Source: Streptomyces sp. Q6 (lineage in GTDB: Bacteria > Actinomycetota > Actinomycetes > Streptomycetales > Streptomycetaceae). Taken from it: DNA of 64,000 bases. The translations under genes and the position numbers were made by a program. The stretch is from contig NZ_CP146022.1 of the NCBI RefSeq assembly GCF_036967205.1, forward strand, positions 4,464,001-4,528,000, given 5' to 3'. The notes below the pieces were generated by a model. That model worked only from the letters and a program-made list of their open reading frames with translations, did no database searches and was not told where the DNA came from. Of this stretch, positions 18,030 through 29,994 are shown piece by piece (position 1 is the stretch's first letter; every line of letters starts with the position of its first letter).

Positions 18030-18284
18030 TCAGCGCGTGGCCGACTCCCACACCGCCACGGCCAGCGCCGCGCACGAGGTGATCGCCGCCAGGGAGGGCA
18101 GCGGCCAGCGGGCCCGCTCCAGGGAGTCCAGGCGCGCCTCGTGCTCGTCGAGGGTCTTGTCGGTCTGGTCGGCGCGTTGCAGGAGCAGGGCGAGGTTGCC
18201 CTGCGTGGTGGCGAAGCCGACGTCGACGGAGCGCCGCAGTCGCTCCAACTCCAGCGCCACACCGGCCTGTTCGATATCGGTCAT
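18030..18284 (-). CDS. small coiled-coil membrane protein, last gene of tail module
   Basis: 84 aa. Residues ~1-60 form an amphipathic coiled-coil (ELERLRRSVDVGF, RADQTDKTLDEHEARLDSLE). A C-terminal membrane helix (LPSLAAITSCAALAVAVW) follows, ending in a short positive tail. Proteins of this shape (XhlA-type) accompany holin and endolysin genes in actinophages and Bacillus prophages and help lysis. Its ATG overlaps the holin stop (ATGA), which supports co-translation with the holin. Confidence 0.65.
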   Translation of the reverse strand: MTDIEQAGVALELERLRRSVDVGFATTQGNLALLLQRADQTDKTLDEHEARLDSLERARWPLPSLAAITSCAALAVAVWESATR

Positions 18285-18483
18285 GAACCGTCCCCCTTGC
18301 GCAGCCAGCGCGGCAGCAGCCGGTCCACCTCCGGCAGCGCCATCACCCGCGTGACGGCCGCCGCCACGGCGACGACCCCGCGAGCGCGGGCACGTCCGCG
18401 GCGCCGCCGTCGGCGAGCAGGGGCAGCAGCGCGAGGACGGTCTGGACCGCGGTGCGCAGGGTTCTGCGTGCGGCTTCGCTCAT
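18281..18483 (-). CDS. probable holin, apparent frameshift
   Basis: 67 aa when repaired. The ATG at 18483 has GGAGG 8 nt upstream. The first 36 residues (MSEAARRTLRTAVQTVLALL, then ADVPALAG) continue in the next frame as VVAVAAAVTRVMALPEVDRL and a basic tail RWLRKGDGS, if one C is added to the C4 run at 18376-18379. The product has two membrane helices and a charged C-terminus, as in small phage holins, and lies between endolysin and XhlA-like genes. Unrepaired, the frame ends at 18343 and lacks the second helix. The repaired stop overlaps the next ATG, which argues that the repair is right. Confidence 0.65.
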
Positions 18484-18496
18484 CGTCATCACCTCC

Positions 18497-19348
18497 TCAG
18501 GAGCGCGGTACGCGCAGCCGGTCCCAGCTGGCGCGTCCCGGGATTCCGTCGGCCGCCGCGCCCACGTACCCGAGCCGGCGCTGCCAGGCCGCGTACGAGA
18601 GCACGTCCGCCTCGCCCCACACCGGTCCCGGCCCGACGCGGTAGCGGCCGCAGCCCTCCGCGACCAGGCGCCGCCCCACGGCGGTGCACAGCTCGCTGCG
18701 GCGGCCCGGCACGAAGAAGTCCGCGCCGGGGAAGGGCGCGTACCCGACCGGTGCCGGGACCGGCCGCACCCCGAGCCGGGCCTCGACACGGGTGCGCATC
18801 CCGGCCATCGAGAACGACGGGTCGATCTTGCGTCGGGTCCACTCCTTGTGCCCGATCACGCTCGCCGCCGACCAGCCGTGGGCGCGGCACAGGGCGGCGG
18901 ACACCCTTTCCACGGCGGCGAGTTGGACGGCCGGGTAGGGGTCCTTGCCCGTGCCCAGGTTCTCGATCTCGAAGCCGTAGAAATGGGTGTTGCCGTCGAC
19001 GGCGTCGGGGCCCGGCGCCGCGGGCACCGGCCGTTCGGCGCGTACGGCGTCGTACGCGGCCGACGATCCGGCGCCCGCGTGGTTGGTGCGGCCGCAGCCG
19101 ACGAGGTGGACCGTGCCGTCCTTGGCGATCAGGCCGACGCACAGCGGTCCCGGCAGGGTGGCGGTGCCGTCGCGGCACAGGGTGAGACTGTCGCGGCCCG
19201 CGGTGTGGTGCAGCATCACGCCGTGGACCGGGCCCCAGGGGCCCTTGTGGTTGCGGTTGCGCGTCTGCCAGCGGGGGTGCTCGAAGACGCGTACGCCCTC
19301 GTCGCGCAGGGCGCGGGCGAGGGCGTACGCGGTCAGGGGTGTGGCCAT
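18497..19348 (-). CDS. endolysin: N-acetylmuramoyl-L-alanine amidase with wall-binding domain
   Basis: 283 aa. An N-terminal Amidase_2/PGRP zinc hydrolase spans residues ~30-190, with VMLHHTAG supplying the first zinc His, HFYGFEIENLG and IGHKEWTRRKIDPSF supplying later His/Lys. The C-terminal ~75 residues (GVWGEADVLSYAAWQ-type segment, YVGAAADGIPGRASW) are a peptidoglycan-binding module common in Streptomyces phage endolysins. It cuts the stem peptide from MurNAc. There is no signal peptide, so release should need the neighbouring holin. Confidence 0.9.
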   Translation of the reverse strand: MATPLTAYALARALRDEGVRVFEHPRWQTRNRNHKGPWGPVHGVMLHHTAGRDSLTLCRDGTATLPGPLCVGLIAKDGTVHLVGCGRTNHAGAGSSAAYDAVRAERPVPAAPGPDAVDGNTHFYGFEIENLGTGKDPYPAVQLAAVERVSAALCRAHGWSAASVIGHKEWTRRKIDPSFSMAGMRTRVEARLGVRPVPAPVGYAPFPGADFFVPGRRSELCTAVGRRLVAEGCGRYRVGPGPVWGEADVLSYAAWQRRLGYVGAAADGIPGRASWDRLRVPRS

Positions 19349-19378
19349 GGGCGGTTCCCTAGGTGCTCGGGGCGGGGG

Positions 19379-20011
19379 TCACACGGGGGTGACCGTGACG
19401 AAGCGGTTGGCGAAGGTGGCGGTGCTGGTGGTGGCCGCGGACTTGTAGGCGAGCGTCGCGGTGTACGCGGTGTTCGCGGTCAGGCCCGTGACCTGGAACT
19501 GGGTCGTCGCCGAGCAGGCGCTCGTGCCGGTGACGATCGCGGCGCGGGTGTCGGCGGCGGCGAGGACGACCGTCGTGCCGTTCTTGACGTTGGCGGAGAC
19601 GTACACGGCGGTCGCGGCGGAACTGCCGCCGCGGGCGCCGACCGTGAGCAGGACCGCGCCGGACGGCGGCGCCGTGAAGGTCACCGTCGTGGCCGTGGAG
19701 CCGGTCAGCGCCTCCACGTAGGCCGTGGACGTCGTGGTGCCCGAGCCGGTGTTGGCGCCGTGCACCGGGCCCGGGGCGAGGACCGCCCACTTCGTGCCGT
19801 TGTAGTACGTGTACTGCTTCGGCGTGGTGAGGAAGGCGAGCATCCCGGCGACCGGGGCGGGGACCTTGGCGTCGAGGGAGGCCTGGTCGGCGAAGCGCAG
19901 GACGGTGCGGCCGTCCACCGCCTCGGCCAGGGACTGGAGGTGCAGGGGGATGTTCGCGGCGTCGGCGGGCTGCGGGTAGGGCAGGCCGCCGAGCGGGGTG
20001 AGCAGGGACAT
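19379..20011 (-). CDS. probable tail-tip receptor-binding protein
   Basis: 210 aa; the ATG has GGAGG 7 nt upstream. The N-terminal ~85 residues (LTPLGGLPYPQPADAANIPL, then FADQASLDAKVPAPVAGMLA and TYYNGTKWAVLAP) are of the type found at the start of tail-fibre or minor tail proteins in Streptomyces phages and prophages. The C-terminal part is a Thr/Ala/Ser/Val-rich beta-sandwich likely to bind a surface receptor. It sits between the hub genes and the lysis genes, the usual place for the adsorption protein. Assigned by position and composition; a decorative tail protein is an alternative. Confidence 0.6.
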   Translation of the reverse strand: MSLLTPLGGLPYPQPADAANIPLHLQSLAEAVDGRTVLRFADQASLDAKVPAPVAGMLAFLTTPKQYTYYNGTKWAVLAPGPVHGANTGSGTTTSTAYVEALTGSTATTVTFTAPPSGAVLLTVGARGGSSAATAVYVSANVKNGTTVVLAAADTRAAIVTGTSACSATTQFQVTGLTANTAYTATLAYKSAATTSTATFANRFVTVTPV

Positions 20012-20105
20012 GCGGGGTCCTCCGGTTCTGGGGTGACTGACCTGACGGGGCGGCGCCGATCCGGGCGGGGGCTGTCCGGGCGGTGCGGGTGCGGGCAGGG
20101 GACAT

Positions 20106-20240
20106 CCGGCCGTGACGGTCAGTTGGCAGGACTGTCCAGGGGCTGTCCGGGCCGTGACGATCAGCCGGCAGGGCTGTCCGGGCCGTGACGATCCGGGCGG
20201 TACTGATCCGGGCCGACACGGTCAGTTGGCAGGGCTATCC
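20106..20240. repeat. four degenerate ~31-bp tandem repeats
   Basis: Units begin at about 20106, 20147, 20178 and 20208, and share CCGGGCCGTGACGRTCAG and GGCAGGRCTGTCC cores; the third is shortened. They overlap the end of the 52-aa gene and fill most of the gap before the receptor-binding gene. No frame reads through them sensibly. Confidence 0.7.
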
Positions 20241-20393
20241 GGGCAGGGACGGCGGCAGGGTGTCGGCGGACGAGCCTCCGTCGCCGGCCGTGCCGGCGGC
20301 GCTGTCGACCGGGACGGGCAGCGCGACGTTCCCGTCGTCCGGCGCCGGCTCCTCGGCCGGTACCGGCGGGATCTCGGGGAGCGGTTCCGTCAT
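20235..20393 (-). CDS. small Pro/acid-rich protein in tail operon
   Basis: 52 aa (MTEPLPEIPPVPAEEPAPDD start). Its ATG overlaps the stop of the hub gene (ATGA), the same coupling seen elsewhere in this operon, so I consider it real despite low complexity. It has no membrane segment and is likely disordered. Small genes between hub and fibre genes are common in actinophage tail modules; the function is unknown. Confidence 0.5.
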   Translation of the reverse strand: MTEPLPEIPPVPAEEPAPDDGNVALPVPVDSAAGTAGDGGSSADTLPPSLPG

Positions 20394-22765
20394 GACGTGC
20401 CTCCCGTCGAGGCCAGCAGGGCGCGGTAGGTGAACCCGGCGGTGGTCAGCGCGTCGAGCGTCGGGTACCCGGCGGTGATCTCCGCGTACGTGCGCTGTGT
20501 GCCGTACTCCGGGTCGACCGGCGGGTCGGGGACGAGGCCGGGGTCGAGCGGGACGCCGTTGTACGCCGTGCCGCGCAGGGTCAGCGTCTGCTGCGGTGCG
20601 GCGCCGGCCTGGCAGGTGGTGCGGATGCCGACCACCCAGGCGAGGGTGTCGAGCGCGGCGCCGGTGACGTCCACCACCCGTACGACGTCGCCGAGTTGGA
20701 TGCGCGGATCGTGCAGCACCTCCACCTCGCCGAGCACCGGGACGGGGAAGCGTCCGGCGTCGAGCATGGCGTGCGAGAGGGTGTCGGCGGACTGCCGGGA
20801 CTGCACCCAGGCGGAGGCGGCGGCCTCGTAGACCTGCTTGCCGTAGTACGCCTGGCTCGTCGTGTTGTACCAGGCGAAGGTGCGCTGGCGGGACTGTCCC
20901 GAGCGGACCTGCGGGATGATCTGCACCGACGGCTTGCCGTCCTTGGTCACGGTCCACACGGTGGCGGTGCCGTGGTTGATGAACCGCACCACGTAGTCCG
21001 GGCCGTCCCGCAGCGAGCTGACCGTGACGCTGCCCTTGACCGAGGTGCCGCCGGTGGCGGCGCTGCCGAAGCGCACCTTGTGGCCGGTGATCGGCGCGGC
21101 GTCGTCGTCGATCTGGAGCGGGCCGATGTCGTTCTCGTCCTCGGCGATGGCGTACCGGACCTCCACCACGGTGCCGGGGTCGATCCTGCGGACCACGGTG
21201 TCGGTGACGGTCTCGCCGTTGACGCTCTTGATGCCGGTCCAGTCGGCGTAGGGCTGCTGGCAGTAGTTGCGGCAGGCGTCGATCTCCTCGGAGACGGTGA
21301 GCGCGGAGACCGAGCGGCGGGTGGTGACCGTCAGATCGGGTCGCGGCGGGACCGTGCGGAACCGGGCGGGCCCGTGCCACCGGAAGACGCCCTGCTCGTC
21401 GAACTCGGCGGTCGACATGGTGGCGCGCGCGATCTCGGTGAGGGCGTCCCACTGCGACCCCGACACCTGAGGGACGTCGTACAGCGGGATGTCGGCCTCG
21501 TCGAGGACCGCTCCCTTGCGCCAACGGCCTTTCATATCCCACTCGTTGGCGTTGTACGAGTCGAGGTCGGTCCACGAGCGGTCGGTGACCTGCACGCACT
21601 CGACGGCCATGTCGGTGATCAGGTCGACGCGGTGCAGCTCGGACGGCGGCTGCCCGGCGGAGGCGTCCACATAGGTGCCGGGGCCGCCCGCCAGGTACTC
21701 GCCGTCCGGTGCCGTCAGGCGCGGCTTCACCGTCGCCATGACCGGCGAGCCGCCCGCCCTGGTGTCCACGGCGAAGCCGAGGTGCCAGGCGCCGCGCAGC
21801 GAGGCGAGCTTGCTGAAGGTCCAGATGAACAGCCAGCCCGAACCGTCGACCGTGCCCGAGCCGACCTTGACCTGCCCGGTGGAGATGTCGAAGACCGCGT
21901 TGTAGTAGCCGTACTTGCCGGCGCTGCGGTCGAAGACCAGCTTCAGCTCCACGATGCTGTCCTTGGCCAGCGCCGTGTTGACGTACGCCTCGGCCTGGAA
22001 CACCTTCCCCGATACGGCGAACCGCGAGCGCGGCATCCACGAGACACCGAGCCGCGCGGCGGCCGGCATCAGCGCCATCTCGTACGGGGCGCCGTCCCTG
22101 ATCCAGGAGTACGCGGACGGGTCGGGCAGTGTCTCGGGCTGGCCGTAGGTGGCGTTGAACCCGCCGTGCAGCGATGCGTACAGCGCGGTGAACGGCTGGT
22201 CGAGGCTCGCCGCGACCGCGGGGGCGCGCGGCGGCGGGCAGGTGTGGATGCCGCCCTGGCGCAGCAGCTCGTCCACGCACCAGGCGGTCGTCGCGACGGG
22301 CTTGCCGTACAGCAACCCCTGGTACGGGCGCGGCAGTTGAGCCGGGCCGCGCAGCCGCTCCGCACCGTCCAGGGCCTGCACGGTGACGGTGTCGCTGCCG
22401 GACGCGGCGGTCCGGGAGCGCACGGTGCCGCGGAAGGCGGGCACGGTACGGCCGGACAGGCCCGCCTCGTGCACCGCCGACTGGCCCGGCCGCACCGCGT
22501 CGGACGTGGCGCGCGGCGCCCAGGCCGAGTACAGGCGCGGCGCGGGTGTGCCGTCGGCGCCGCCGAGCTCCACCTCCAGCTGTGCGGAGGCGCTGCCGGA
22601 GACCGCGCGCATCGCGTCCGGCAGGTCGGTGGCGTAGGCCCGCTCCACCTTCCAGGACTGCACCTGTTCGCCGAGGTCCCTGCCTCCGAAGCGGGTGGCG
22701 TGGGCCGGCGCCCGCTCGGGCGCGGCGAGCGCGCCGTCGAGCTCGGTGTCGTCAGAGTTCAGCAC
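20390..22765 (-). CDS. tail hub/baseplate protein (Tal-like minor tail protein)
   Basis: 791 aa from a GTG with GGAGG 6 nt upstream, overlapping the distal tail gene by 14 nt. The N-terminal ~180 residues look like a phage tail hub domain (VQSWKVERAYATDLPDAMRA, FRGTVRSRTA). A lectin-like insert (~200-360; LHLGFAVDTRAGG-type strands) follows, then a second hub-like part with DEQGVFRWHG and IQLGDVVRVVDVTGAALDTL. It would cap the tail below the distal tail protein and carry the receptor-binding protein. No peptidase motif noted. Confidence 0.8.
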   Translation of the reverse strand: MLNSDDTELDGALAAPERAPAHATRFGGRDLGEQVQSWKVERAYATDLPDAMRAVSGSASAQLEVELGGADGTPAPRLYSAWAPRATSDAVRPGQSAVHEAGLSGRTVPAFRGTVRSRTAASGSDTVTVQALDGAERLRGPAQLPRPYQGLLYGKPVATTAWCVDELLRQGGIHTCPPPRAPAVAASLDQPFTALYASLHGGFNATYGQPETLPDPSAYSWIRDGAPYEMALMPAAARLGVSWMPRSRFAVSGKVFQAEAYVNTALAKDSIVELKLVFDRSAGKYGYYNAVFDISTGQVKVGSGTVDGSGWLFIWTFSKLASLRGAWHLGFAVDTRAGGSPVMATVKPRLTAPDGEYLAGGPGTYVDASAGQPPSELHRVDLITDMAVECVQVTDRSWTDLDSYNANEWDMKGRWRKGAVLDEADIPLYDVPQVSGSQWDALTEIARATMSTAEFDEQGVFRWHGPARFRTVPPRPDLTVTTRRSVSALTVSEEIDACRNYCQQPYADWTGIKSVNGETVTDTVVRRIDPGTVVEVRYAIAEDENDIGPLQIDDDAAPITGHKVRFGSAATGGTSVKGSVTVSSLRDGPDYVVRFINHGTATVWTVTKDGKPSVQIIPQVRSGQSRQRTFAWYNTTSQAYYGKQVYEAAASAWVQSRQSADTLSHAMLDAGRFPVPVLGEVEVLHDPRIQLGDVVRVVDVTGAALDTLAWVVGIRTTCQAGAAPQQTLTLRGTAYNGVPLDPGLVPDPPVDPEYGTQRTYAEITAGYPTLDALTTAGFTYRALLASTGGTS

Positions 22766-23594
22766 CGCGCACCTCCACCAGATCGATGCTGACGTTGCGG
22801 TACGGCAGCGGGTTCGCGGGCGCGTCGCTGTACGCGGTCACGCTCATCGCGGGGCAGCCGTCGCCCAGTGCGTACGCGACCGGGGTGTCGCCGATCGTCA
22901 GACAGGCGCCGGCCAGCCCGAACAGGCCGGTCGCTCCGGGGCCGCCGACGGGGGTGACGTAGGCGGCGTCGGCCGGTGCGGTGCCGGTCACGGTGGACCC
23001 GGCGGCGGAGGACGTGGACAGGTACGACCCGTCGGCGGCCTTCCAGTCCAGCTGCGCGGTGGCGGTCGCCGCGCTCCAGTCCGGCGGCACCAGCCAGGAC
23101 ACGCGCATGCCGGGGGCGACCGGCCAGCCCGGCCAGGTGCCGTGCCGCCAGCCGATCCGGGTGACGTCCTGGAACTGCGCGACGACGGTGTCGCCGACGG
23201 CCGGGCTGACGACCATCGTGCCCACGATGGTGAACCAGTGGTCGCCGCCGCTGGGCGAGCTGGACTGCGCGGCGGCCTGGTAGGGGTCGAGCAGGTTCAG
23301 TGAGGCCGGGTCGAGCAGGGCGAGCGGCCCGTACGACGGGGACGAACTCCCTTGCAGACCCGGCCCGTTGACCCGGCGGGCGAGCCGGACGAGATGCTGG
23401 GCCTCGTCCGGCGGGAGCAGGTCCCAGGAGAACTTGAGCCGGCGGGGGGTGCGCGGCGGGGCGACGGTGGTGACCGCGCCCTCCAGGGACTTGAACTCCG
23501 TGACGTTCAGGTCGGCGGTGCGGTCCCAGCTCTTGGCGGCCTGCGGTATCTCGCGCAGCAGGCCGGGCTTTCCGATCCACAGATTTCTGATCAT
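22752..23594 (-). CDS. distal tail protein (Dit-like)
   Basis: 280 aa; GGAG 6 nt before the ATG. It follows the tape measure gene by 10 nt, as in siphophages. The N-terminal belt domain begins MIRNLWIGKPGLLREIPQAA. The C-terminal half is a galectin-like beta-sandwich (WFTIVGTMVVSPAVGDTV, RVSWLVPPDW). Dit forms the ring joining tail tube and tip. Assigned from order and fold-like features. Confidence 0.75.
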   Translation of the reverse strand: MIRNLWIGKPGLLREIPQAAKSWDRTADLNVTEFKSLEGAVTTVAPPRTPRRLKFSWDLLPPDEAQHLVRLARRVNGPGLQGSSSPSYGPLALLDPASLNLLDPYQAAAQSSSPSGGDHWFTIVGTMVVSPAVGDTVVAQFQDVTRIGWRHGTWPGWPVAPGMRVSWLVPPDWSAATATAQLDWKAADGSYLSTSSAAGSTVTGTAPADAAYVTPVGGPGATGLFGLAGACLTIGDTPVAYALGDGCPAMSVTAYSDAPANPLPYRNVSIDLVEVRGAEL

Positions 23595-23604
23595 GGGGTG
23601 CTCC

Positions 23605-24594
23605 TCACCTCCGAGCGAGCTGGCGCTGTCCGACCTGGACGGCGCGGGCGATGACCTGGGAGTCCACCGCGACGTGCACGGGCCGTGCGGCCATCGCCTC
23701 GACGGCGGCGGCGAGCCGGGCGAGCGTGGCGGCGTTGCCCGGGTGGTGGCCCATCATGCGGCTGAGCTTGGACAGCGGGATGACGGCCTCGTTCTCGCCG
23801 CCCTCGCCGATGAGCGCGAGCCGGCCGCCGGAGCGGGCCTGGACGACGCCGCCCTCGGCGAGGGTGGGGATGTTCGGGATCTGCGGCAGATGGATCCCGA
23901 ACTCCTTGCCACCGACGACCGGGACCCAGCCCGGGATCTTCACGTGGATGGAGTTGAGCCCGCGGATCATCGCGTTGATGCCGCCGATGTAGGCGCGCGG
24001 CAGCGCCGTGAACCCGTTGACCAGGCCCTTCATGATGCTCTTGATGGGCCCGGCGTGGGAGCGGATGGCCCCGGAGATCGCGTTCCAGGCCCACTTCACG
24101 CCGGCGGCCAGCGCCTTGGACACCTTGTCCATGTTGATGAACTGGCTGATGATCGGCGCGAGCAGCGAGATGACGAGGCCGAGGGCGTTGGCCTTCATCG
24201 CGGTGTTGAGGCCCTTCTGGGCGAGGGTGGCGCCCTTGAGCCCCTTGCCGAGCCCGCCCATGGACTTGCCTCCGCCGGTGGCCGTCTTCCCGGCCTTGCC
24301 GACGGACTTCTCGACGGCGTCGGACTGCCGCTTCACGTCGCGCAGGGCCGTGTTCGCCTTGCCGGAGGACGACTTGAGGTGGTCGAGGGAGGACTTGAAC
24401 TTGTCGGTGGAGGCTCGGGACCGGCCGAGTGCGGTTCCGGCGCTGCCCGCGCCGCTGCCGACCTTGCCGACCGACGAGGAGGCGTTGGCCGCGGAGCCGC
24501 GCAGCTGGCGGGCGGCCGAAGAGGCCTGGGCCGCCGCGCTGCGGAAGCGGGCGAGGTGTCCGGCCGCGGTGGTCGAACTGCGAGCGAGTGTCAT
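23605..24594 (-). CDS. tape measure protein, unusually short
   Basis: 329 aa. An Ala/Ser/Lys-rich helical N-terminal half (LARSSTTAAGHLARFRSAAA, KFKSSLDHLKSSSGKANTAL) precedes a hydrophobic stretch near residues 130-160 (GLVISLLAPIISQFI). The C-terminus has the classic actinophage tape-measure ending ALAEGGVV-like (TLAEGGVVQARSGGRLALIG, then GEGGENEAVIPLSKL). Siphophage tape measures are usually 700-2000 aa. At about 0.15 nm per residue this one would specify a tail near 50 nm. The adjacent upstream membrane protein may share its role. Confidence 0.8.
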   Translation of the reverse strand: MTLARSSTTAAGHLARFRSAAAQASSAARQLRGSAANASSSVGKVGSGAGSAGTALGRSRASTDKFKSSLDHLKSSSGKANTALRDVKRQSDAVEKSVGKAGKTATGGGKSMGGLGKGLKGATLAQKGLNTAMKANALGLVISLLAPIISQFINMDKVSKALAAGVKWAWNAISGAIRSHAGPIKSIMKGLVNGFTALPRAYIGGINAMIRGLNSIHVKIPGWVPVVGGKEFGIHLPQIPNIPTLAEGGVVQARSGGRLALIGEGGENEAVIPLSKLSRMMGHHPGNAATLARLAAAVEAMAARPVHVAVDSQVIARAVQVGQRQLARR

Positions 24595-24611
24595 GGCAAC
24601 TCCCGTTCTCG

Positions 24612-25127
24612 TCAGGCGATGGCGCGGGCCGCGCGGCTGACATCGGAGGTGAGGTCGTGGAGGGACCGGGCCAGTTCGATCGACGCCTTGCGCATGCTCT
24701 TCAGACGCTCGGGGTCGACGCTGGTCACGGGGACGGGGGGAAGCCGGTTCGCGGTGGCCCTGGCCTCCAGCGTCTTCTTCCGGCGCGGCAGACCGGTCTC
24801 GCCGTGCGCGAGCCCCATCTTGTCCATCACCTTCGCCTTGGACTTGTCGGTGTCGACGAAGTTGCTCACGATGAAGCCGGTGATGACGGCGCCGAGCGCG
24901 GACCAGGCGACGACGGAGCTGCCCTTGAAGTCCTTGAAGGACTTCACCAGTTCGTCCAGGCCGAACCCGAGGGACTTGGCCCAGTTCTCCGCCTGGGTCG
25001 GTTCCTCCTTCGCCTCCTTGAACTTCTGGTCGATGTATTCCTTGGAAGCCCCGGTCCCCTTGTCCTCCAATTTCTTCTTTATGGCGGCTACTTCGGTGTA
25101 GACCTCGTCGATCGTGTGGCTGGGCAT
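24612..25127 (-). CDS. membrane protein of unknown function inside tail module
   Basis: 171 aa. A charged helical N-terminus (AAIKKKLEDKG, EYIDQKFKEAKEE) is followed by one membrane helix at about residues 72-90 (VVAWSALGAVITGFIVSNFV) and a C-terminal coiled-coil (ERLKSMRKASIELARSLHDL). I do not recognise the family. It occupies the place between tail chaperones and tape measure where siphophages normally have no gene. It could be the detached N-terminal part of the tape measure, an immunity or anchoring protein, or a cargo protein. Codon use resembles its neighbours. Confidence 0.6.
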   Translation of the reverse strand: MPSHTIDEVYTEVAAIKKKLEDKGTGASKEYIDQKFKEAKEEPTQAENWAKSLGFGLDELVKSFKDFKGSSVVAWSALGAVITGFIVSNFVDTDKSKAKVMDKMGLAHGETGLPRRKKTLEARATANRLPPVPVTSVDPERLKSMRKASIELARSLHDLTSDVSRAARAIA

Positions 25128-25147
25128 GGAGTTCCCTTCAAGCTCTC

Positions 25148-25176
25148 TTGACAGCTTGTGTGGCGGCCCGGATAGT
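25148..25176 (+). promoter_or_regulatory. sigma-70-type promoter for DUF3592 gene
   Basis: A perfect -35 TTGACA (25148-25153) lies 17 nt before a -10 GATAGT (25171-25176), pointing into the plus-strand gene at 25218. It lies in the 90-bp gap between two divergent genes. Confidence 0.6.
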
Positions 25177-25217
25177 GATACGCGGATTGATCGCCGGTGT
25201 TTCTTCGGGTGGGGGAA

Positions 25218-25601
25218 ATGTACGGATTAGCTGGTTTGGTGGCGGCCTTCGCGCTCGCCGTGCTCTATGCCGCTGTACGAATCTTTCGGCGCGGGCGGGC
25301 GCTGCGCACGCGCGGGATCAGGGTCTCCGCGGCATGCGTGAATGAAGACAATTCCTCGAAGGGCGGCACATTCCTACAGGTCCAATTCCCGGTGGAGGAC
25401 CGGGAACTGGTGACCAGTGTCGGCCCATTCAGTTTTCCGCCGGCCCGGCGCGGGGAATCGCTCACCGTGGTCTACGACCCGCAGGACCCGACCAATATCG
25501 AGACGCCGGAACAGATGTCCAGCGGGAAACTCGCCATTGGTTTCATGGGATTCGCCTGCGTGCTGCTCGCGCTGGCCGCTCTCATGTTCATCACCGCCTA
25601 G
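25218..25601 (+). CDS. DUF3592-like membrane protein, reversed within tail module
   Basis: 127 aa from the ATG at 25218; in-frame GTGs at 25209 and 25197 are alternatives. A membrane helix at the N-terminus (GLAGLVAAFALAVLYAAVRI) precedes a soluble beta-domain (FLQVQFPVEDRELVTSVGPF, TVVYDPQDPTNIE), and a second helix lies at the C-terminus. This is the DUF3592 layout. It is the only plus-strand gene in the tail block, has its own promoter, and is less GC-rich than its neighbours (for example GAAGACAATTCCTCGAAG). It looks like a 'moron', an independently expressed insertion. Function unknown. Confidence 0.75.
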   Translation: MYGLAGLVAAFALAVLYAAVRIFRRGRALRTRGIRVSAACVNEDNSSKGGTFLQVQFPVEDRELVTSVGPFSFPPARRGESLTVVYDPQDPTNIETPEQMSSGKLAIGFMGFACVLLALAALMFITA

Positions 25602-25608
25602 CCGTTCC

Positions 25609-26001
25609 TCACGAGAGGAACCGGAGTACTTCCTCCGGGGCGGGGAGACCGGCGCGGCCGGCGTCCGCGGGGGCCGGTTCGCTCTCCGCGGCGAGGCGGT
25701 CGGCCGGCCGCTTCAGCGGGGTCGGGAACTCCGGTGGATCGGCGTCCTCGCCCTGATTCACCACGGCGAACATCCAGTTGGACTCGGCCAGTTGGTCGAT
25801 CATGTGCGCCAGGAGATGGTCCGTCACCCCCCAGGTGGCGGCCTCGCCGTGCAGAGCGTGGGCGAAGGCGCCGTCGCGCGGCAGGTGCCGGACGAGGATC
25901 GCGAGCCGCCGGGACGACAGCTGCCCCCGGTGCCAGTCGAGAAGGTCCACGCCGTAATGGCGCAGCAGATCGGCCTCGATGGCCTCGGCGTGCTCCTCCA
26001 C
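25609..26001 (-). CDS. tail assembly chaperone, downstream (T) frame
   Basis: The open frame is 130 codons from a GTG at 26001. Its real translation is probably by -1 frameshifting from the upstream gene, because the same frame is open back to the slippery site at 26022-26028 and adds the conserved-looking GRLSLGELVEEHAE. The region DLLRHYGVDLLDWHRGQLSS, RRLAILVRHLP, WGVTDHLLAHMIDQLAESNW and a Pro-rich end are typical of actinophage tail chaperone T domains. The G-T fusion binds tape measure and tail tube subunits during assembly and is not in the finished tail. Confidence 0.8.
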   Translation of the reverse strand: MEEHAEAIEADLLRHYGVDLLDWHRGQLSSRRLAILVRHLPRDGAFAHALHGEAATWGVTDHLLAHMIDQLAESNWMFAVVNQGEDADPPEFPTPLKRPADRLAAESEPAPADAGRAGLPAPEEVLRFLS

Positions 26002-26015
26002 GAGCTCGCCGAGGC

Positions 26016-26306
26016 TCAGTCTTCCCCCAGGCCCAGCCCCGTCTCCTTGCCGTACGCCTCCAGGATCGCGGCGATGTCCTGCACGGTGACGTCGTGCCGC
26101 TCGAACCGTGCGAACTGGCTCTCGCCGAGCAGGATGTGGAGCAGTCCGTCCACGTCGTTGTCGTCGAGGGCGCGCAGCTTGCGGGCGACTCCGCGGCCGA
26201 GTTCGGTCGGCAGCTCGAACGTGTCGTCGTCGAGCTGGAAGGTCCAGGCCCGGCCGAGCGCTTCGAGGCGCTGGGCGCGGGCGGCGTTGACGTTGAAACC
26301 TGCCAT
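26016..26306 (-). CDS. tail assembly chaperone, upstream (G) protein
   Basis: 96 aa (MAGFNVNAARAQRLEALGRA start). It contains TFQLDDDTFELPTELGR and ends YGKETGLGLGED, over a GGGGGAA run. Size, position after the major tail protein and the slip site before the stop codon match the G gene of the lambda-type G/GT pair. It is expected to be made in excess over the G-T fusion. Confidence 0.82.
   Translation of the reverse strand: MAGFNVNAARAQRLEALGRAWTFQLDDDTFELPTELGRGVARKLRALDDNDVDGLLHILLGESQFARFERHDVTVQDIAAILEAYGKETGLGLGED
26022..26028 (-). promoter_or_regulatory. programmed -1 frameshift slippery heptamer GGGGGAA
   Basis: Minus-strand GGGGGAA lies two codons before the G-gene stop (frame GGG-GAA-GAC-TGA). 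A -1 slip enters the open T frame. Frameshifted chaperone pairs at this genomic position are conserved in tailed phages; the heptamer is not a perfect X-XXY-YYZ, so efficiency is uncertain. Confidence 0.7.
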
Positions 26307-26424
26307 GAGGTGCTCCTGATGGGGAAGTTGAGGAGGACGGGGGAGTGTGGGAGGGGACGGACCGGCGCGCGCGAGCCGCGCGCGCCGGTCCGACTGGTGG
26401 TGCTGGTGGTGCCGTTACGCGCCC

Positions 26425-27027
26425 TTACGCGTAGGCGCCGTCCTTCATCAGCCAGGTCGCCAGCGGCTTCGACGTGTCGTCCTGGGCGTACGCGGTGAAG
26501 GTGACGCCGAGCTTCATGGCCCCGGTGCGGGTCATCGAGATCTCCTCGGTCTCGGTGACCTGGCCGCGCGGGACGATCAGCCGGTAGACGACCGCCGTGC
26601 CGTTCTGGACGTCGGTGAACTCGATGCCCAGCGAGCGCTCGTCCGCGCCCGGGTTGGTGGTGAGGTCGTACTTGTACGTGCCGGCCTCGGCCGGGGTGCC
26701 CACGGTCGCCGTGGAGCCGCCGCCCATGAAGAACGGCAGGGTGCTCTTGTTGAACTGCATCAGCTGGAACTTCAGCGTCAGCTCTCGGTCGGAGTAGATG
26801 TAGCGCAGCGCGCTCACCGACTGCCAGCCGTCCACCTGGTCGATCTTGTCCTTCTTGGCGAGCTTGACGCCGTCGGTGGACGTGTAGCCCAGCTCGGTCC
26901 ACCCGGTCGGCCAGGCCACGCTGGTGTCGGCCGGAGCGGCGATCGGGGTGGCGGCGTTGAAGGCGGCGACGAGCACCTTGCCGGTGCCCGGGACGCGGAT
27001 CTGGGAGCTGGTGTTCGGAGAAGGCAT
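26425..27027 (-). CDS. major tail (tube) protein
   Basis: 200 aa; AGGAG precedes the ATG. Tube-protein features are an N-terminal arm (VPGTGKVLVAAF), GWTELGYTSTDGVKLAKKDK, and a long beta-rich core with RELTLKFQLMQFNKSTLPFF and YRLIVPRGQVTETEEISMTR. A C-terminal Ig-like extension is absent. It would polymerise around the tape measure. No sheath gene lies beside it, so the tail is non-contractile. Confidence 0.85.
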   Translation of the reverse strand: MPSPNTSSQIRVPGTGKVLVAAFNAATPIAAPADTSVAWPTGWTELGYTSTDGVKLAKKDKIDQVDGWQSVSALRYIYSDRELTLKFQLMQFNKSTLPFFMGGGSTATVGTPAEAGTYKYDLTTNPGADERSLGIEFTDVQNGTAVVYRLIVPRGQVTETEEISMTRTGAMKLGVTFTAYAQDDTSKPLATWLMKDGAYA

Positions 27028-27045
27028 GGAAGGCTCCTTCGTAGG

Positions 27046-27447
27046 TCAGGCGGGACGGATCGAGAGCTGGAGGCGGGTCAGGTAGCGGCTGGCGGCCGGG
27101 CGGTTGTAGTCGGGCAGCCAGCGCGGCCCCTCGACCTCCGTCACGTCGGTGACGACCGCCGTGCCGTAGGCCGTGCCCTGCAACTCGTGCACGCAGGCGC
27201 GGGCGGCGAGGGCGATGGTGTGGGCGACCGTCTTGTCGGCGGCGTACGCCTCCAGGTCGACCACGGGGTGGTCGAGGTACAGGTCGTCGATCCAGGTCCC
27301 GCCGGTGCGGGAGACGAGGACGACCTTCTGGGTGCCGTCGAACCCGGCGGGCGGCCGGTTGTCGACCGTCGTGCCCGTCAGTTCGGCCCGGGTCTTGAGG
27401 AAGTCGACGACGAGACGTTCGACGTCGGGAAAGTTCAGTACGGACAC
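27046..27447 (-). CDS. tail terminator/completion protein
   Basis: 133 aa from a GTG with GGGAG 7 nt upstream (VSVLNFPDVERLVVDFLKTR). The longer frame upstream is not protein-like. It has an alpha/beta fold with VVLVSRTGGTWIDDLYLDHP and VDLEAYAADKTVAHTIALAA, as in tail terminator proteins located just before the major tail gene. It is the first structural gene of the block: the head-tail connector, capsid and terminase genes expected upstream in a phage are not here. Confidence 0.75.
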   Translation of the reverse strand: MSVLNFPDVERLVVDFLKTRAELTGTTVDNRPPAGFDGTQKVVLVSRTGGTWIDDLYLDHPVVDLEAYAADKTVAHTIALAARACVHELQGTAYGTAVVTDVTEVEGPRWLPDYNRPAASRYLTRLQLSIRPA

Positions 27448-27674
27448 ATGAAAGCTCCCGTCAAAAGGGGGAGTCGAGGTGTGCTGGGCGGTGTACGCGC
27501 AGGCCTGCACGCTCCGGACCGCGACTGCGACGAGGGGTCCGGGCAACACGAAGCGGCAGGTCCGCCGCCCGGGGTTCCGGGCGCAGCTCTGCCGCTGCTC
27601 CCAGTGTGATCGGGGGCCCCGGATCCCGCAACTCGCCTACTCAGAGCCCTTGTTGGGGGCCCGGGAACGCGAGT
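27448..27674. other. gap between regulatory and structural genes
   Basis: About 225 bp separate the structural genes from the regulator genes. I see no gene, tRNA or clear promoter in it. It is expected to hold the promoter for the tail operon, since a terminator separates it from the regulators. Confidence 0.4.
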
Positions 27675-27705
27675 GGGCCCGCTGACGAATGACGTCAGCG
27701 GGCCC
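27675..27705 (-). terminator. perfect 13-bp hairpin after the regulator operon
   Basis: The arms GGGCCCGCTGACG and CGTCAGCGGGCCC flank a 5-base loop, 22 nt beyond the stop of the AlpA-like gene. It separates regulators from tail genes, so the two blocks probably have different promoters. Confidence 0.85.
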
Positions 27706-27727
27706 TCTTGTCGCGGTGGGTTGAGTG

Positions 27728-27919
27728 TCAGGCGGAGGTGTCGGTGTTTCTGCCGCGCGCGATCCGCTCAGCGGCGAACACGTCCTCAAGCCGGTACATG
27801 AGCCGCCGCCCCTGTCTCCCGGCGGCCTTGAGATGGCCGAGCTGCACCCACTTGCGGATGGTGGCGGGCGCGACGCCGGCTTCGGCGGCGGCGAGCTCGC
27901 CGGTGATGAAGCAGCTCAC
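27728..27919 (-). CDS. small AlpA/excisionase-like helix-turn-helix protein
   Basis: 63 aa from a GTG with GGAGG 7 nt upstream, overlapping the previous stop (GTGA). The winged HTH spans most of the protein: ITGELAAAEAGVAPATIRKW, VQLGHLKAAGRQGRRLMY, then EDVFAAERIARG. These MerR-related mini-regulators act as excisionases or activators of phage genes. With no integrase nearby, a role activating the downstream tail operon is more likely (inference). Confidence 0.75.
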   Translation of the reverse strand: MSCFITGELAAAEAGVAPATIRKWVQLGHLKAAGRQGRRLMYRLEDVFAAERIARGRNTDTSA

Positions 27920-28413
27920 GCGCGGACCTCCTGACGGCACACGGGGTTCACGCACATCACCACGGCCCGCTCCGGCAGGGCCCGCAGGGACACCGAATCG
28001 CAGGCGGGGCAGCGCCCGGCGATCCGCACGAGCTGCTCCGGGTCGCCGACGGCGCGTCCGCAGCGGGCGGCCATCCGCCGTGCCTCGCTGACCAAGTGGG
28101 CGTCCAGGTCCGGGAGTTCGGCGACGCGCCCGGCGAGATCGGCGAGCCGTCGCAGCCGTACGACGACGGGTGCGGGCCGCGCGGGCCGCAGCCCGAGCCG
28201 TTCGCGCACGGCCTCCTCCAGTTCGACGACCCCGTCGGTGATGTCGCGCAGGGCGTCGGACACGTAGAGCCGGACGGGTGCGCGACCGCCGCCGGAGTCC
28301 GGGCCGCTCCGCTCGCGCAGGGTGCGGCCGCTGGAGGGCGCCAACTCGGCGAGCAGCAGCGGAAATCGCTCGGCCAGGGTGTGCAGCCACAGCGTCGCGG
28401 CGGAGCCACTCAT
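27916..28413 (-). CDS. zinc-ribbon protein of unknown function in regulator operon
   Basis: 165 aa; GGAGG 7 nt before the ATG at 28413. A helical N-terminal part (LWLHTLAERFPLLLAELAPS) and a middle with VRLRRLADLAGRVAELPDLD precede a C-terminal zinc ribbon CPACDSVSLRAL, then VMCVNPVCRQE. Both its ends overlap neighbours by four bases, forming a tightly coupled WhiB - zinc ribbon - HTH operon. Similar proteins occur in Streptomyces prophages; their role is unknown. Confidence 0.65.
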   Translation of the reverse strand: MSGSAATLWLHTLAERFPLLLAELAPSSGRTLRERSGPDSGGGRAPVRLYVSDALRDITDGVVELEEAVRERLGLRPARPAPVVVRLRRLADLAGRVAELPDLDAHLVSEARRMAARCGRAVGDPEQLVRIAGRCPACDSVSLRALPERAVVMCVNPVCRQEVRA

Positions 28414-28709
28414 CGCACATCCTCCTCTGCGCTCCGTACCGGCACCTCGCGTCCGTTGCGCCACAGCCGGCCCCCGCTGACCCCGTCGAACCAGGTGTGC
28501 GCGGGGTCGACCACGGCCTCGCACAGCTCCCGGATCGCACATTGGTTGCACGCTCGCAACGTATGGGCGGCGTCGGTGGGGTCGCGAGTGAAGACGTAGT
28601 GGGAGGGGAGGGACGCGCAGGCGGCGGATCTGCGCCAGTCGAGCTCGTCGTCGTGAAGTGGAAAACCCCTGCTCAATAGGGGTTTCGAAGAAGTTGCAGG
28701 GCTGAACAC
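28410..28709 (-). CDS. WhiB-like Fe-S transcription factor
   Basis: 99 aa from a GTG with GGAGG 8 nt upstream. Four cysteines bind a 4Fe-4S cluster, C31-x22-C54-x2-C57-x5-C63 (AACASLP, ACNQC, ELC), followed by the beta-turn region TWFDGVSGGRLWRNGR, where the family usually has G-V-W-G-G. Phage and prophage WhiB proteins modulate sigma-factor regions. Its promoter region holds a perfect SOS-type palindrome, so this may be the damage-responsive switch of the tail module. Confidence 0.88.
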   Translation of the reverse strand: MFSPATSSKPLLSRGFPLHDDELDWRRSAACASLPSHYVFTRDPTDAAHTLRACNQCAIRELCEAVVDPAHTWFDGVSGGRLWRNGREVPVRSAEEDVR

Positions 28710-28744: not shown

Positions 28745-28777
28745 GAGAAAAGCGAACGCGCGATCAGAGTCGCATGA

Positions 28778-28903
28778 TGCGTGCGCGTGCGCAAGCGACT
28801 ACAGGGAGTCGAGAGACGAAGGAGAGGAGCGAGGTGTGAGCGCCAAAAGAGGCTTCCGCTAATGGAGTTGGTGTCAAGGTCTCCCTCTGCGTGCGCGTGC
28901 GCA
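28778..28903. repeat. repeated TGCGTGCGCGTGCGCA motif in divergent promoter region
   Basis: The identical 16-mer lies at 28778-28793 and 28888-28903, exactly 110 bp apart. A shorter TGCGTGCGCGC follows at 28913-28923. The inner GTGCGC-GT-GCGCAC is nearly palindromic, as expected of an operator. They lie between the WhiB-like gene (minus) and the XRE gene (plus), so autoregulation by the XRE protein is a reasonable guess. Confidence 0.5.
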
Positions 28904-28961: not shown

Positions 28962-29453
28962 ATGGGCAGCAGTTCGTGGGCACGCGCCCACACCGACCCG
29001 GATCAACGGGACGACGCGGAGGAGGCGGCGCGCGCCGGGCTCGACGCGTTCGCGGGCTGGATCGAGGACCTGATGCGGCAGCGCGGCTACACCATCGACA
29101 GCCCGCGCGGCGGCGGCCGTTCCCGCCTGGCCGACGACGCCGGGGTGCACCGGGCGGCCGTCAGCAGGCTGTTGCAGCGGCAGAGCATGCCCGACCTGGA
29201 GACCATGCGCCGCCTGGCCGTGGCGCTCGGGGTGCCGCTGCGCGACGTACTGATCCGCTCCGGCCGGCTCTCCGAGGAGGATCTGCCGGTTGGCGGGACG
29301 CAGGAAGGGAATCCAGGGAACGGGTCCGCTGAAGGGACGCGTCTGACGCCCGAGGAGGCTGCCCGCAGAATGGGCGTACCGCCCGAATTGCGGGAGACGT
29401 TCGTCAGGGTGGCGAAGCAGTTCCTGCCGGGCGGTGACTCGATGAACAGGTGA
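28962..29453 (+). CDS. XRE-family helix-turn-helix regulator
   Basis: 163 aa; GGGGAG precedes the ATG. The HTH is at about residues 46-90 (RSRLADDAGVHRAAVSRLLQ, then MPDLETMRRLAVALGVPLRD). A Gly/Glu linker and a C-terminal tail with LTPEEAARRMGVPPELRET follow. XRE proteins like this serve as phage-type repressors. It is divergent from the WhiB-like gene across about 250 bp holding the SOS-like palindrome and repeated motifs, which makes it the best candidate repressor of the tail module. Confidence 0.82.
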   Translation: MGSSSWARAHTDPDQRDDAEEAARAGLDAFAGWIEDLMRQRGYTIDSPRGGGRSRLADDAGVHRAAVSRLLQRQSMPDLETMRRLAVALGVPLRDVLIRSGRLSEEDLPVGGTQEGNPGNGSAEGTRLTPEEAARRMGVPPELRETFVRVAKQFLPGGDSMNR

Positions 29454-29487
29454 CCGCCCCTGGGGAGGGGTGGAAGGGTGGGGACAT

Positions 29488-29994
29488 ATGGGGCGCGACA
29501 GAGTCGACGCACGGACGGACGCGTCCACGCGCGGCACGGGGGACTCGTCCGACACGGGCGCCACGGACGGGGCCGCACGCCTCACGGGGGAGCTGCTGGT
29601 CGAACTGGGCCGCAAGATAGCGGAGTTCGGCGAACGCGCGGTACGGATCGTCACGGTCGACGAGATGGAGCGCGAGCAGGTCGTCTGGTTCCGCCTCGGC
29701 TGGGAGGAGCACGCCCGCCACGCGGCGGGCGAGCCCCCGGCCCCACCCGCCCAGAACGCCGTCCCCGCACGGCTGTTGACGTTCCCGGAGCGCGCCCCCG
29801 ACTTAGTCGAGGAGCCCCGCCACGACCGCTACGACGACGCGGTGGAACCCGGAACGGGCGGCCCTGCCCCGCTCCCGACGGTCCCCGACGCGAACGTACG
29901 CGACCTCATGCCGCACCGCCCCGCCTGGCCCCGCGGGACCACGCCCCCACCCCGCCCGACAGCCCGACCCCAGGCGCGCCCGGCGCCGGAGTAG
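29488..29994 (+). CDS. hypothetical protein downstream of XRE regulator
   Basis: 168 aa; a purine-rich GGGTGGGGAC precedes the ATG at 29488. A helical core at residues ~30-75 (TGELLVELGRKIAEFGERAV, VDEMEREQVVWFRLGWEEHA) is followed by a Pro/Ala/Arg-rich tail of about 90 residues that is likely disordered. No known domain recognised. It is 34 nt after the XRE gene and probably co-transcribed with it. Confidence 0.6.
   Translation: MGRDRVDARTDASTRGTGDSSDTGATDGAARLTGELLVELGRKIAEFGERAVRIVTVDEMEREQVVWFRLGWEEHARHAAGEPPAPPAQNAVPARLLTFPERAPDLVEEPRHDRYDDAVEPGTGGPAPLPTVPDANVRDLMPHRPAWPRGTTPPPRPTARPQARPAPE

What the first reader, a model, noticed from the sequence alone, without database searches (positions are those of the whole stretch)
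18030..28709. Tail-only siphovirus-like module: candidate non-contractile tailocin
The minus-strand block contains a tail terminator, tube protein, G/T chaperones, tape measure, distal tail and hub proteins, receptor-binding protein, endolysin, holin and holin partner in normal phage order. I see no capsid, portal, terminase, integrase or replication gene, and both flanks are ordinary Streptomyces chromosome genes. Several features suggest a maintained particle rather than a decaying prophage: gene overlaps are intact, the chaperone slip site is kept, and the lysis cassette is present. Contractile injection systems are known in Streptomyces; a flexible-tail bacteriocin with its own lysis genes would be a different device.
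Basis: partly seen in the sequence, partly recalled or inferred. Interest (0 to 1): 0.88.

Follow-up and report, generated by a model that had tools for sequence, protein, structure and literature searches.

The report
Headless phage-tail islands in Streptomyces
A soil bacterium carries, and many of its relatives keep intact, the genes for a phage tail without a head (probably a weapon against other bacteria), including a swappable pair of genes that looks like a variable tail component and the membrane protein that protects its owner from it.

Summary
The observation largely holds. Window 18030-28709 encodes a siphophage-type tail without head, packaging or integrase genes. It belongs to a family of islands in Streptomyces: the G chaperone is matched in 89 of 392 genomes. 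Of 99 loci I chose to fetch, 8 carry head homologues (prophages), 91 none. Many islands sit at a few fixed sites (hspR-xylF, rpoC-rpsL, dnaE2), evolve under purifying selection (omega 0.20-0.33), keep the GGGGGAA -1 slip site in 90 of 90 loci and share a repressor/operator control region. Best reading: an F-type (non-contractile) tailocin released by lysis. Particles and killing were not tested, and this copy's holin frame is interrupted.

They co-vary independently of the island background (partial rank correlation 0.26, p=0.0008). One strain whose pair differs from that of its close relative carries the relative's membrane gene as an orphan (0.97 similar). This looks like effector and immunity; no paper I saw describes this for a tailocin. 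New variant of a known kind.

The parts
28962..29453 (+). Divergent Cro/CI-type repressor (REP)
   Evidence: PF01381 7.5e-10, phrog_3949 transcriptional repressor 3.1e-17; conserved beside many islands
29470..29994 (+). Conserved neighbour of REP (unknown function, one TTA codon)
   Evidence: Cluster c30 with 8 members; no PHROG family and no Pfam family; TTA count
28777..28794 (.). Candidate operator, palindrome close to TTGCGCGC-NN-GCGCGCAA (3 mismatches)
   Evidence: 71 sites in the 47 REP promoter regions against 19 in 900 kb elsewhere. In the window alone it is no more than chance gives
28410..28709 (-). WhiB-like regulator, first gene of the tail operon
   Evidence: PF02467 3.1e-4 (below cut-off), phrog_472 WhiB 4.6e-6
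27916..28410 (-). m15, phrog_1467 protein with possible zinc ribbon
   Evidence: phrog_1467 7.5e-9; PknG_rubred 1.2e-4, below cut-off
27728..27922 (-). MerR/HTH_17 DNA-binding protein
   Evidence: PF12728 9.4e-7; phrog_2474 2.6e-14
27046..27447 (-). Tail terminator
   Evidence: phrog_123 7.7e-22
26425..27027 (-). Tail tube protein
   Evidence: PF25681 2.7e-58; phrog_117 4.1e-30
26016..26306 (-). Tail assembly chaperone G
   Evidence: phrog_10551 1.7e-24
26022..26028 (-). -1 slip site GGGGGAA joining G to T
   Evidence: Present in 90 of 90 loci, although elsewhere in G only 153 of 600 Gly codons are GGG and 108 of 736 Glu codons are GAA
25609..26001 (-). Tail assembly chaperone T extension
   Evidence: phrog_5813 2.2e-26; -1 frame relative to G
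25197..25601 (+). Antisense two-TM DUF3592-like protein: candidate immunity protein
   Evidence: PF12158 E 0.0016, below the family cut-off; family alignment; co-variation with tmp1
25148..25176 (+). Promoter-like site (TTGACA-17-GATAGT) in front of the DUF3592 gene
   Evidence: 2 such sites in 5.1 kb against 0.1 in shuffles
24612..25127 (-). tmp1: coiled-coil protein with one hydrophobic segment, variable: candidate effector or tape-measure partner
   Evidence: no Pfam family above cut-off
23605..24594 (-). Short tape measure protein (329 aa)
   Evidence: phrog_34082 5.9e-13 and ten other tape-measure families at E 0.1 or better
22752..23594 (-). Distal tail (Dit-like) protein
   Evidence: Position; homologue in prophage L075, 44% identical; weak phrog_20280 in 1 of 22
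20390..22765 (-). Tail hub / Tal-like protein
   Evidence: Position; homologue in prophage L075; weak phrog_1887 'tail protein' in 2 of 20
21512..22207 (-). Lectin-like jelly-roll domain inside the hub (residues about 187-418)
20235..20393 (-). Small Pro/Ala-rich protein (52 aa), conserved in part
   Evidence: tblastn in L002, L003, L006, L018, L029, L066-L068
19379..20011 (-). Receptor-binding-like tail protein
   Evidence: phrog_16452 1.7e-10; phrog_7565 minor tail protein 3.9e-7
18497..19348 (-). Amidase endolysin with wall-binding domain
   Evidence: PF01510 5e-19; phrog_880 9.3e-65; NF038080 3.4e-31
18281..18483 (-). Holin, reading frame interrupted in this copy
   Evidence: Frames printed; intact holins of 68-91 aa in type A relatives
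18030..18284 (-). Last gene of the lysis end (phrog_5225)
   Evidence: phrog_5225 1.7e-25; covered to 83% or more in 22 of 22 type A loci

Best explanation
The module is a domesticated headless siphophage tail, i.e. an F-type (non-contractile) tailocin island, here in its short 'type A' form. Working model: (1) inferred: a divergent repressor on palindromic operators keeps the WhiB-MerR-tail operon off; (2) inferred from homology: on induction, tube, terminator and the slip-site chaperone pair build a short flexible tail (329-aa tape measure, about 50 nm at about 0.15 nm per residue, a recalled rule) with a Dit and a hub that carries a sugar-binding lectin domain; (3) inferred: endolysin and holin lyse the producer hypha and release the tails; (4) inferred: tails bind related Streptomyces by the exchangeable DIT-HUB-RBP unit and depolarise them; (5) inferred: the protein behind chaperone T (tmp1) travels with the tape measure as a variable component, and the usually antisense DUF3592-like membrane protein blocks the cognate tmp1, protecting the unlysed kin. 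Shown here: gene content, headlessness, conservation, fixed sites, purifying selection, slip site, operator enrichment, modular swaps and tmp1-partner co-inheritance.
For: Gene content and order. Headless: head homologues in 8 of 99 loci, 0 of those 8 with the control genes or the DUF3592 gene, and in 0 of the other 91 or the window. Hub unmatched in 50,697 phage records and by a pattern scan of viral contigs. Omega 0.20-0.33 in six pairs. GGGGGAA in 90 of 90. Fixed sites on a tree of 59 loci (24 of them in no site group): hspR/xylF 1 change, dnaE2 1, rpoC-rpsL 2; 0 of 500 shuffles as low. No tail gene between hspR and clpB in 12 of 12 other genomes fetched. Operator 71 sites in 28 kb against 19 in 900 kb; of the 13 loci not used to derive it, 11 have a site with at most 2 mismatches. 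L068/L069 differ by swapped DIT-HUB-RBP (pN 0.30-0.37 against 0.02-0.15 in the other 11 genes compared). Hub lectin domain. tmp1-partner: partial rank correlation 0.26, p=0.0008, against 0.02 for tmp1-TMP and 0.11 for tmp1-T; nearest neighbour shared in 15 of 18 and, in new loci, 4 of 5. L003/L029: background 0.96 alike, tmp1 0.04, adjacent partner 0.04, yet L029 has an extra partner 0.97 like that of L003.
Against: No particle, induction or killing data. The holin frame of this copy is interrupted. Some relatives are decayed (L005, L021, L023, L074, L098) or remnants (L058, L125, L126). Type C islands (L030-L035) show no relative of the type A lysis genes and no DUF3592 gene, so release by this cassette cannot be general. 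Only 35 of 91 headless loci have the DUF3592 gene in the gap (27 of 60, window counted and duplicate L066 not; 8 of 31); 15 of 23 loci at rpoC-rpsL lack it. tmp1 has no known toxin domain, and in several loci with a partner no strong hydrophobic segment, which weakens a pore reading. Partner also correlates with the tape measure (0.18) and T (0.15) after the background is removed, and linked genes swap together for any reason. In L098, a new locus, partner and tmp1 point to different relatives. DUF3592 scores are below the Pfam cut-off in this copy, and only 6 of 16 partners match at E 0.05.
Confidence: 0.72

Rival explanations
1. Cryptic prophage remnant: the tail end of a decaying siphoprophage, kept by chance.
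For: Tail genes are of phage descent; prophages with related hub and DIT exist (L075, L127, L128); this copy has a broken holin and some copies are decayed.
Against: A head-free tail set recurs in 91 of the 99 loci fetched, many at a few fixed sites, under purifying selection, with a constant slip site and a shared operator and control region. Independent decay would not stop at the same gene each time.
Confidence: 0.1
2. Headless tail with a producer-internal role, like the cytoplasmic contractile systems of Streptomyces: it acts in programmed lysis or development rather than on other strains.
For: Streptomyces contractile injection systems are cytoplasmic and affect cell death (titles and abstract starts of PMC10066040 and PMC12237407 in the listing); type C islands show no relative of the lysis genes; regulators include a WhiB-like protein.
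Against: Type A has an endolysin-holin-type end, an exchangeable tip with a lectin domain and a membrane protein that co-varies with a tail-linked protein, all better explained by outward action on relatives.
Confidence: 0.15
3. The DUF3592/tmp1 pair is not effector and immunity but a phage-style moron: the membrane gene excludes superinfecting phages by blocking their tape measure, and tmp1 is merely the fast-evolving front part of a split tape measure.
For: Ltp-type exclusion lipoproteins act on the tape measure (cited in passages of PMC3952083 and PMC11480721); tmp1 is coiled coil and sits where the N-terminal part of a tape measure would; partner-TMP correlation 0.18.
Against: The partner co-varies more with its own island's tmp1 (0.26), and tmp1 does not co-vary with the tape measure (0.02); orphan and multiple copies occur (L029, L036, L055, L062, L069); it is absent from the 8 prophages.
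Confidence: 0.3
4. A tail donor for a head-carrying satellite or helper phage elsewhere in the genome.
For: The genome has a head-bearing prophage-like stretch about 330 kb away.
Against: That stretch appears to have its own tape measure (1075-aa ORF) and tail genes (by eye); islands keep the same composition at fixed sites in many genomes.
Confidence: 0.03

Closest known systems
Monocins of Listeria (F-type tailocin, ftb cluster, Gram-positive host)
   Same: Headless siphophage-type tail genes with a holin-lysin cassette at the downstream end, a single monocin region per strain (passages of PMC7076858)
   Different: A WhiB/MerR/repressor region and a tmp1/DUF3592-like cassette are not mentioned in the passages read; sequences were not compared here
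F-type pyocins of Pseudomonas and rhizoviticin of Allorhizobium
   Same: Non-contractile headless tail with regulators and lysis genes (passages of PMC10811719)
   Different: Gram-negative hosts; the words 'immunity' and 'tape measure' do not occur in the rhizoviticin paper's held main text; sequences were not compared here
Streptomyces contractile injection systems (SLP/CIS)
   Same: Phage-tail-like device in the same genus (passages of PMC8910223)
   Different: Contractile; no sheath family and no other contractile-system family matched the window module's genes
Ltp/Sie superinfection-exclusion proteins
   Same: Membrane-anchored phage-encoded protein whose target is the tape measure (cited in passages of PMC3952083)
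   Different: The partner here is DUF3592-like with two hydrophobic segments and is linked to a variable tail-operon protein; no direct comparison with Ltp was made

Membership tests
F-type (non-contractile) tailocin | Siphophage tail genes (tube, terminator, chaperones, tape measure, tip) in one operon | tested here: met
   DIT and hub by position, by homologues in prophage L075 and by weak PHROG hits
F-type (non-contractile) tailocin | No head, packaging, replication or integration genes in the element | tested here: met
   an integrase-like gene lies about 22 kb away beyond dnaK-hspR and is not part of the island
F-type (non-contractile) tailocin | No contractile sheath | tested here: met
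   No sheath family matched any module ORF tested
F-type (non-contractile) tailocin | Lysis cassette for release | tested here: inconclusive
   Endolysin and phrog_5225 intact, holin frame interrupted in this copy; intact holins in many relatives; none detected in type C islands with models of the type A lysis genes
F-type (non-contractile) tailocin | Maintained, not decaying | tested here: met
   Omega 0.20-0.33 in six pairs; 17 of 22 type A loci with all ten genes covered to 76% or more; slip site 90 of 90. Five loci damaged and three remnants
F-type (non-contractile) tailocin | Particles that kill related strains | not testable with these tools
   Needs induction, EM and spot tests
Contractile injection system / R-type tailocin | Sheath, contractile baseplate | tested here: not met
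   No such family among the module's genes
Intact prophage | Portal, capsid, terminase, integrase | tested here: not met
   the head test finds six further prophages beyond the two (L070, L075) that supplied head queries among the loci
Effector/immunity pair (polymorphic toxin type) | Effector and partner co-vary beyond the genomic background | tested here: met
Effector/immunity pair (polymorphic toxin type) | Orphan or multiple immunity genes | tested here: met
   L029 orphan 0.97 like the L003 partner; several copies in L036, L055, L062, L069
Effector/immunity pair (polymorphic toxin type) | Effector with a known toxin domain | tested here: not met
   Eleven tmp1 proteins without any family above cut-off; one weak sub-cut-off HeLo hit in L018. 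Hence not filed as a polymorphic toxin
DUF3592 (PF12158) | Match above the Pfam cut-off | tested here: inconclusive
   This copy 19.5 bits against 25.3; 6 of 16 partners match at E 0.05, best 2.6e-5

The most novel reading that the evidence does not exclude
Streptomyces carry a genus-wide family of F-type tailocins that, unlike the tailocins in the papers I saw, come with dedicated polymorphic immunity: a variable tape-measure-associated protein is delivered by the tail, and a membrane protein encoded beside it, usually antisense and in this window behind a promoter-like site of its own, neutralises only the cognate version. Strains swap the pair and keep old immunity genes as orphans, so tip (DIT-HUB-RBP) and warhead (tmp1) evolve as separate exchangeable units.
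Probability: 0.4. Interest if true: 0.87.

Novelty: new variant of a known kind. Interest (0 to 1): 0.76.

Why it matters
If right, about one in five Streptomyces species sampled (89 of 392 genomes with the G chaperone at E 0.001, 86 of them below 1e-24) holds an undescribed tail-like device beside the known contractile one. How F-type tailocins kill is said to be largely unknown (PMC8910223 passage). A natural set of swapped tmp1/membrane-protein pairs, with orphans, points to the part that may do the damage and to what blocks it, and makes both testable by simple gene removals.

Tried and rejected
Rejected: decaying prophage (see rivals). Rejected: heads supplied by the own prophage. Tried without result: PF03354 in the own genome gave no match; phrog_104 gave none either but rang in no control genome, so it shows nothing. 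Hub and DIT profiles against PDB sequences: none. NCBIfam named only the endolysin, among 10 proteins. DIT structure could not be run. The hub model is weak overall (mean pLDDT 59, pTM 0.50); only its lectin domain is used. In one search that domain also aligns, some rows better, with calreticulin, ERGIC-53, sialidase and clostridial neurotoxin-complex chains; this is a common fold and I draw no functional link from those. Foldseek pdb and viral searches could not be run. The operator match in the window alone is not above chance. sigma-70-like promoters before partner genes: 5 of 50 at 9 or more matches against 1 of 437 tail genes, with 2.3% in shuffles: suggestive only.

Choice of loci: of 89 places listed, I fetched 60 stretches; 26 weaker tube matches (E 7e-13 or worse, 23-30% identity) were not fetched and are probably phage-type tails, so 8 of 99 is not the share of prophages. 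Of the further places, those of G190, G707 (by its hub match probably the same strain as L005), G708, G770 and a second weak one of G746 were not fetched. Of the 15 same-genus relatives, 12 were fetched for the empty site (G001, G002, G008 not).
Pair test: L067 had no tmp1 ORF that I could identify and was left out, as were L024 and L025 (no partner found) and L023, L040, L059 (not curated); 26 loci entered. In the out-of-sample test 8 new loci entered; 3 (L096, L098, L110) had no tmp1 relative at 0.15 or more and were not counted. Only L006/L066 are duplicates.

Literature: full-text searches of the held open-access library (no bioRxiv) for Streptomyces with tailocin and siphovirus (none), phage tail-like and non-contractile (9 papers), tailocin (47 papers, 30 listed), WhiB and tail genes (none), rpoC, rpsL and phage tail (none); F-type tailocin or Actinobacteria (20 of 49,850 listed); tailocin, immunity and tape measure; DUF3592. 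By titles and abstract starts none is about such a Streptomyces device. Passages of five papers were read, no paper in full. Many papers are not held, so this does not prove absence.

Full report
What is there. The window is G000:C1:4464001-4528000 of an 8.95-Mb genome in two contigs; its close relatives by name are Streptomyces. ORF calling by third-position GC and family searches confirm a minus-strand tail module at 18030-28709: WhiB-like protein, phrog_1467 protein and MerR-type HTH first, then tail terminator, tube, chaperones G and T, a 171-aa coiled-coil protein ('tmp1'), a 329-aa tape measure, DIT, hub, a 52-aa protein, a receptor-binding-like protein, amidase endolysin, holin and phrog_5225. 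A Cro/CI-type repressor (28962-29453) is read divergently. A DUF3592-like gene (25197-25601) lies antisense between T and tmp1. The left flank holds a GNAT acetyltransferase, a DUF11 protein and dnaK-grpE-dnaJ-hspR, the right flank a SnoaL-like gene, a sugar-binding protein and clpB.

Chance. The tube match is 2.7e-58. The -1 slip site GGGGGAA at the end of G is present in 90 of 90 loci, although elsewhere in the same genes only 153 of 600 glycine codons are GGG and 108 of 736 glutamate codons are GAA. The T frame is -1 to G in every row printed.

A family, not one remnant. The tube is matched in 79 of 295 genomes of the genus at E 0.001 and the G chaperone in 89 of 392, but G in only 3 of 396 genomes drawn over the phylum, the own genome and two weak hits. 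The type A hub is matched in 25 of 392, of which G264 (locus L075) and G705 (L127) are prophages and G161 and G191 short fragments. I fetched 99 loci of 10-22 kb, chosen by score; 26 weak tube matches were left aside. tblastn with eleven head proteins (portal, protease, capsid, adaptors, putative terminase; taken from L070, L075 and the own prophage) finds head homologues in 8 of 99 loci (L070-L072, L075-L077, L127, L128) and in none of the other 91 nor in the window. PHROG confirms portal, maturation protease and capsid in L070 and portal and capsid in L075. The test finds six prophages beyond the two that supplied queries, but head genes unrelated to the eleven could escape it. The own genome's single PF04586 protease lies about 330 kb away in a prophage-like stretch whose ORFs include a 1075-aa one that looks like a tape measure (by eye).

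Types and sites. Type A (this window; 22 loci) has the short tape measure and the DIT-hub pair. A second type carries two tape-measure-like genes in a row and other tip genes. A third (L030-L035) sits beside dnaE2 and shows no relative of the type A lysis genes. By neighbour genes, of 67 rows 5 lie at hspR, 2 show the sugar-binding neighbour only, 23 lie at rpoC/rpsL/rpsG/fusA, 6 at dnaE2 and 31 elsewhere or unknown; these 31 include 6 prophages and one duplicate. On a tree of 59 loci, 35 of them assigned to a site, each site needs one or two changes, and 0 of 500 shuffles do as well. In 12 of 12 other genomes fetched (of 15 same-genus relatives) the hspR-clpB interval holds no tail gene; in L084-L086 the sugar-binding gene follows hspR within about 0.4 kb. 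So the islands are accessory, but kept at fixed sites.

Selection and decay. Pooled over up to ten tail and lysis genes, omega is 0.27 (0.24-0.31) between the window and L002, and 0.20-0.33 in all six pairs tried. 17 of 22 type A loci have all ten genes covered to 76% or more in one open frame; L004 and L025 lack only the downstream receptor-binding gene; L005 (hub frameshift, receptor-binding gene lost, endolysin cut), L021 (tape measure) and L023 (hub) are broken. L074 and L098 are also damaged, and L058, L125 and L126 look like remnants. The window's own holin frame is interrupted where type A relatives have intact holins of 68-91 aa. I cannot tell mutation from sequencing error.

Control region. 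The stretch between the repressor and the WhiB-like gene carries a palindrome close to TTGCGCGC-NN-GCGCGCAA: 71 sites with up to 3 mismatches in 47 regions of 600 bases, against 19 in the remaining 900 kb; 42 of 47 regions have one. The motif was read from 34 loci; of the 13 loci not used, 11 have a site with at most 2 mismatches, the exceptions being the duplicate L066 and the damaged L074. In the window there is one weaker site (28777-28794), not significant alone. This fits a lysogeny-like switch; it was not tested.

The exchangeable cassette. In the prophages L070, L072 and L075 a long tape-measure ORF follows T directly. In the islands there is instead a region, AT-richer in type A, with tmp1 just before the tape measure and, in 27 of 60 headless loci of the first set (window counted, duplicate not) and 8 of 31 of the second, a two-TM DUF3592-like gene; it is antisense in 23 of the 26 curated pairs. 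0 of 8 prophages have it. Three loci (L004, L027, L043) share another, soluble partner together with related tmp1 proteins. Over 26 curated loci, tmp1 and partner similarity correlate after removing the background of terminator, tube and G (partial rank correlation 0.26, permutation p 0.0008). tmp1 with the neighbouring tape measure gives 0.02 and with T 0.11; partner with the tape measure gives 0.18 and with T 0.15. The locus nearest by tmp1 is also nearest by partner in 15 of 18 cases and, in loci fetched afterwards, in 4 of 5. The clearest case is L003 against L029: background 0.96, tmp1 0.04, adjacent partner 0.04; L029's pair resembles that of L019 (0.54 and 0.48), and L029 has a second partner gene 0.97 like that of L003. 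Several partner genes in a row occur in L036, L055, L062 and L069. The window's pair resembles that of L003 (0.54, 0.37), although its background is nearer L002 (0.92 against 0.70). This is the pattern of effector and immunity genes. Against it: tmp1 has no toxin domain, its hydrophobicity varies, more than half of the headless loci lack the DUF3592 gene, one new locus (L098) does not fit, and linkage alone makes neighbours travel together.

Mechanism and comparison. I commit to an F-type tailocin with separately exchangeable tip and warhead (0.72 for the tailocin, about 0.4 for the effector/immunity reading). Known F-type tailocins (monocins, F-pyocins, rhizoviticin) share the headless siphophage tail with lysis genes (passages). 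Streptomyces contractile systems are a different machine (passages). Tape-measure-directed exclusion proteins exist in phages (passages), which makes a tape-measure-linked membrane immunity plausible.

Noticed in passing
L037-L042, L045-L050, L052, L053, L060, L063, L065, L073 (and L007, L020-L022): Tail islands, most with two tape-measure-like genes in tandem, lie beside rpsL/rpsG/fusA or rpoC; in L007 the whole island sits between rpoC and rpsL inside the ribosomal/RNA polymerase gene region.
   Followed up: partly
L030-L035, upstream of dnaE2: A small headless tail (terminator, tube, chaperones, tape measure, tip) with no relative of the type A lysis genes and no regulator cassette detected, near a protease-like gene; how it would be released is open.
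   Followed up: partly
L078-L079 (G000:C1, about 4.82 Mb): A prophage-like stretch in the same genome with prohead protease and a 1075-aa tape-measure-like ORF; part of its endolysin is 56% identical to the island's over 196 residues.
   Followed up: partly
L080:15207-16268 (+), about 22 kb left of the module: Phage-integrase family gene (PF00589 8.3e-7) beside dcd and a GntR regulator, separated from the island by the dnaK operon and other chromosome genes; probably a remnant of another element.
   Followed up: partly
L068:2276 and 2753, L054:275 and 831, L098:2295 (coordinates after orienting the tail forward): Further DUF3592-like genes outside the T-tape measure gap, beyond the repressor gene; possible orphan immunity genes.
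   Followed up: no
window 29470-29994 and cluster c13 in other loci: Conserved genes beside the repressor and in the gap seem to share a short motif around GW-x-E/D-A (seen by eye); function unknown.
   Followed up: no
L023, L025, L026 (about 8.0-8.8 kb after orienting the tail forward): A receptor-binding-like gene sharing only the first about 79 residues of the window's one sits between T and the tape measure, so the N-terminal docking part is reused; L026 also has the usual downstream gene.
   Followed up: no
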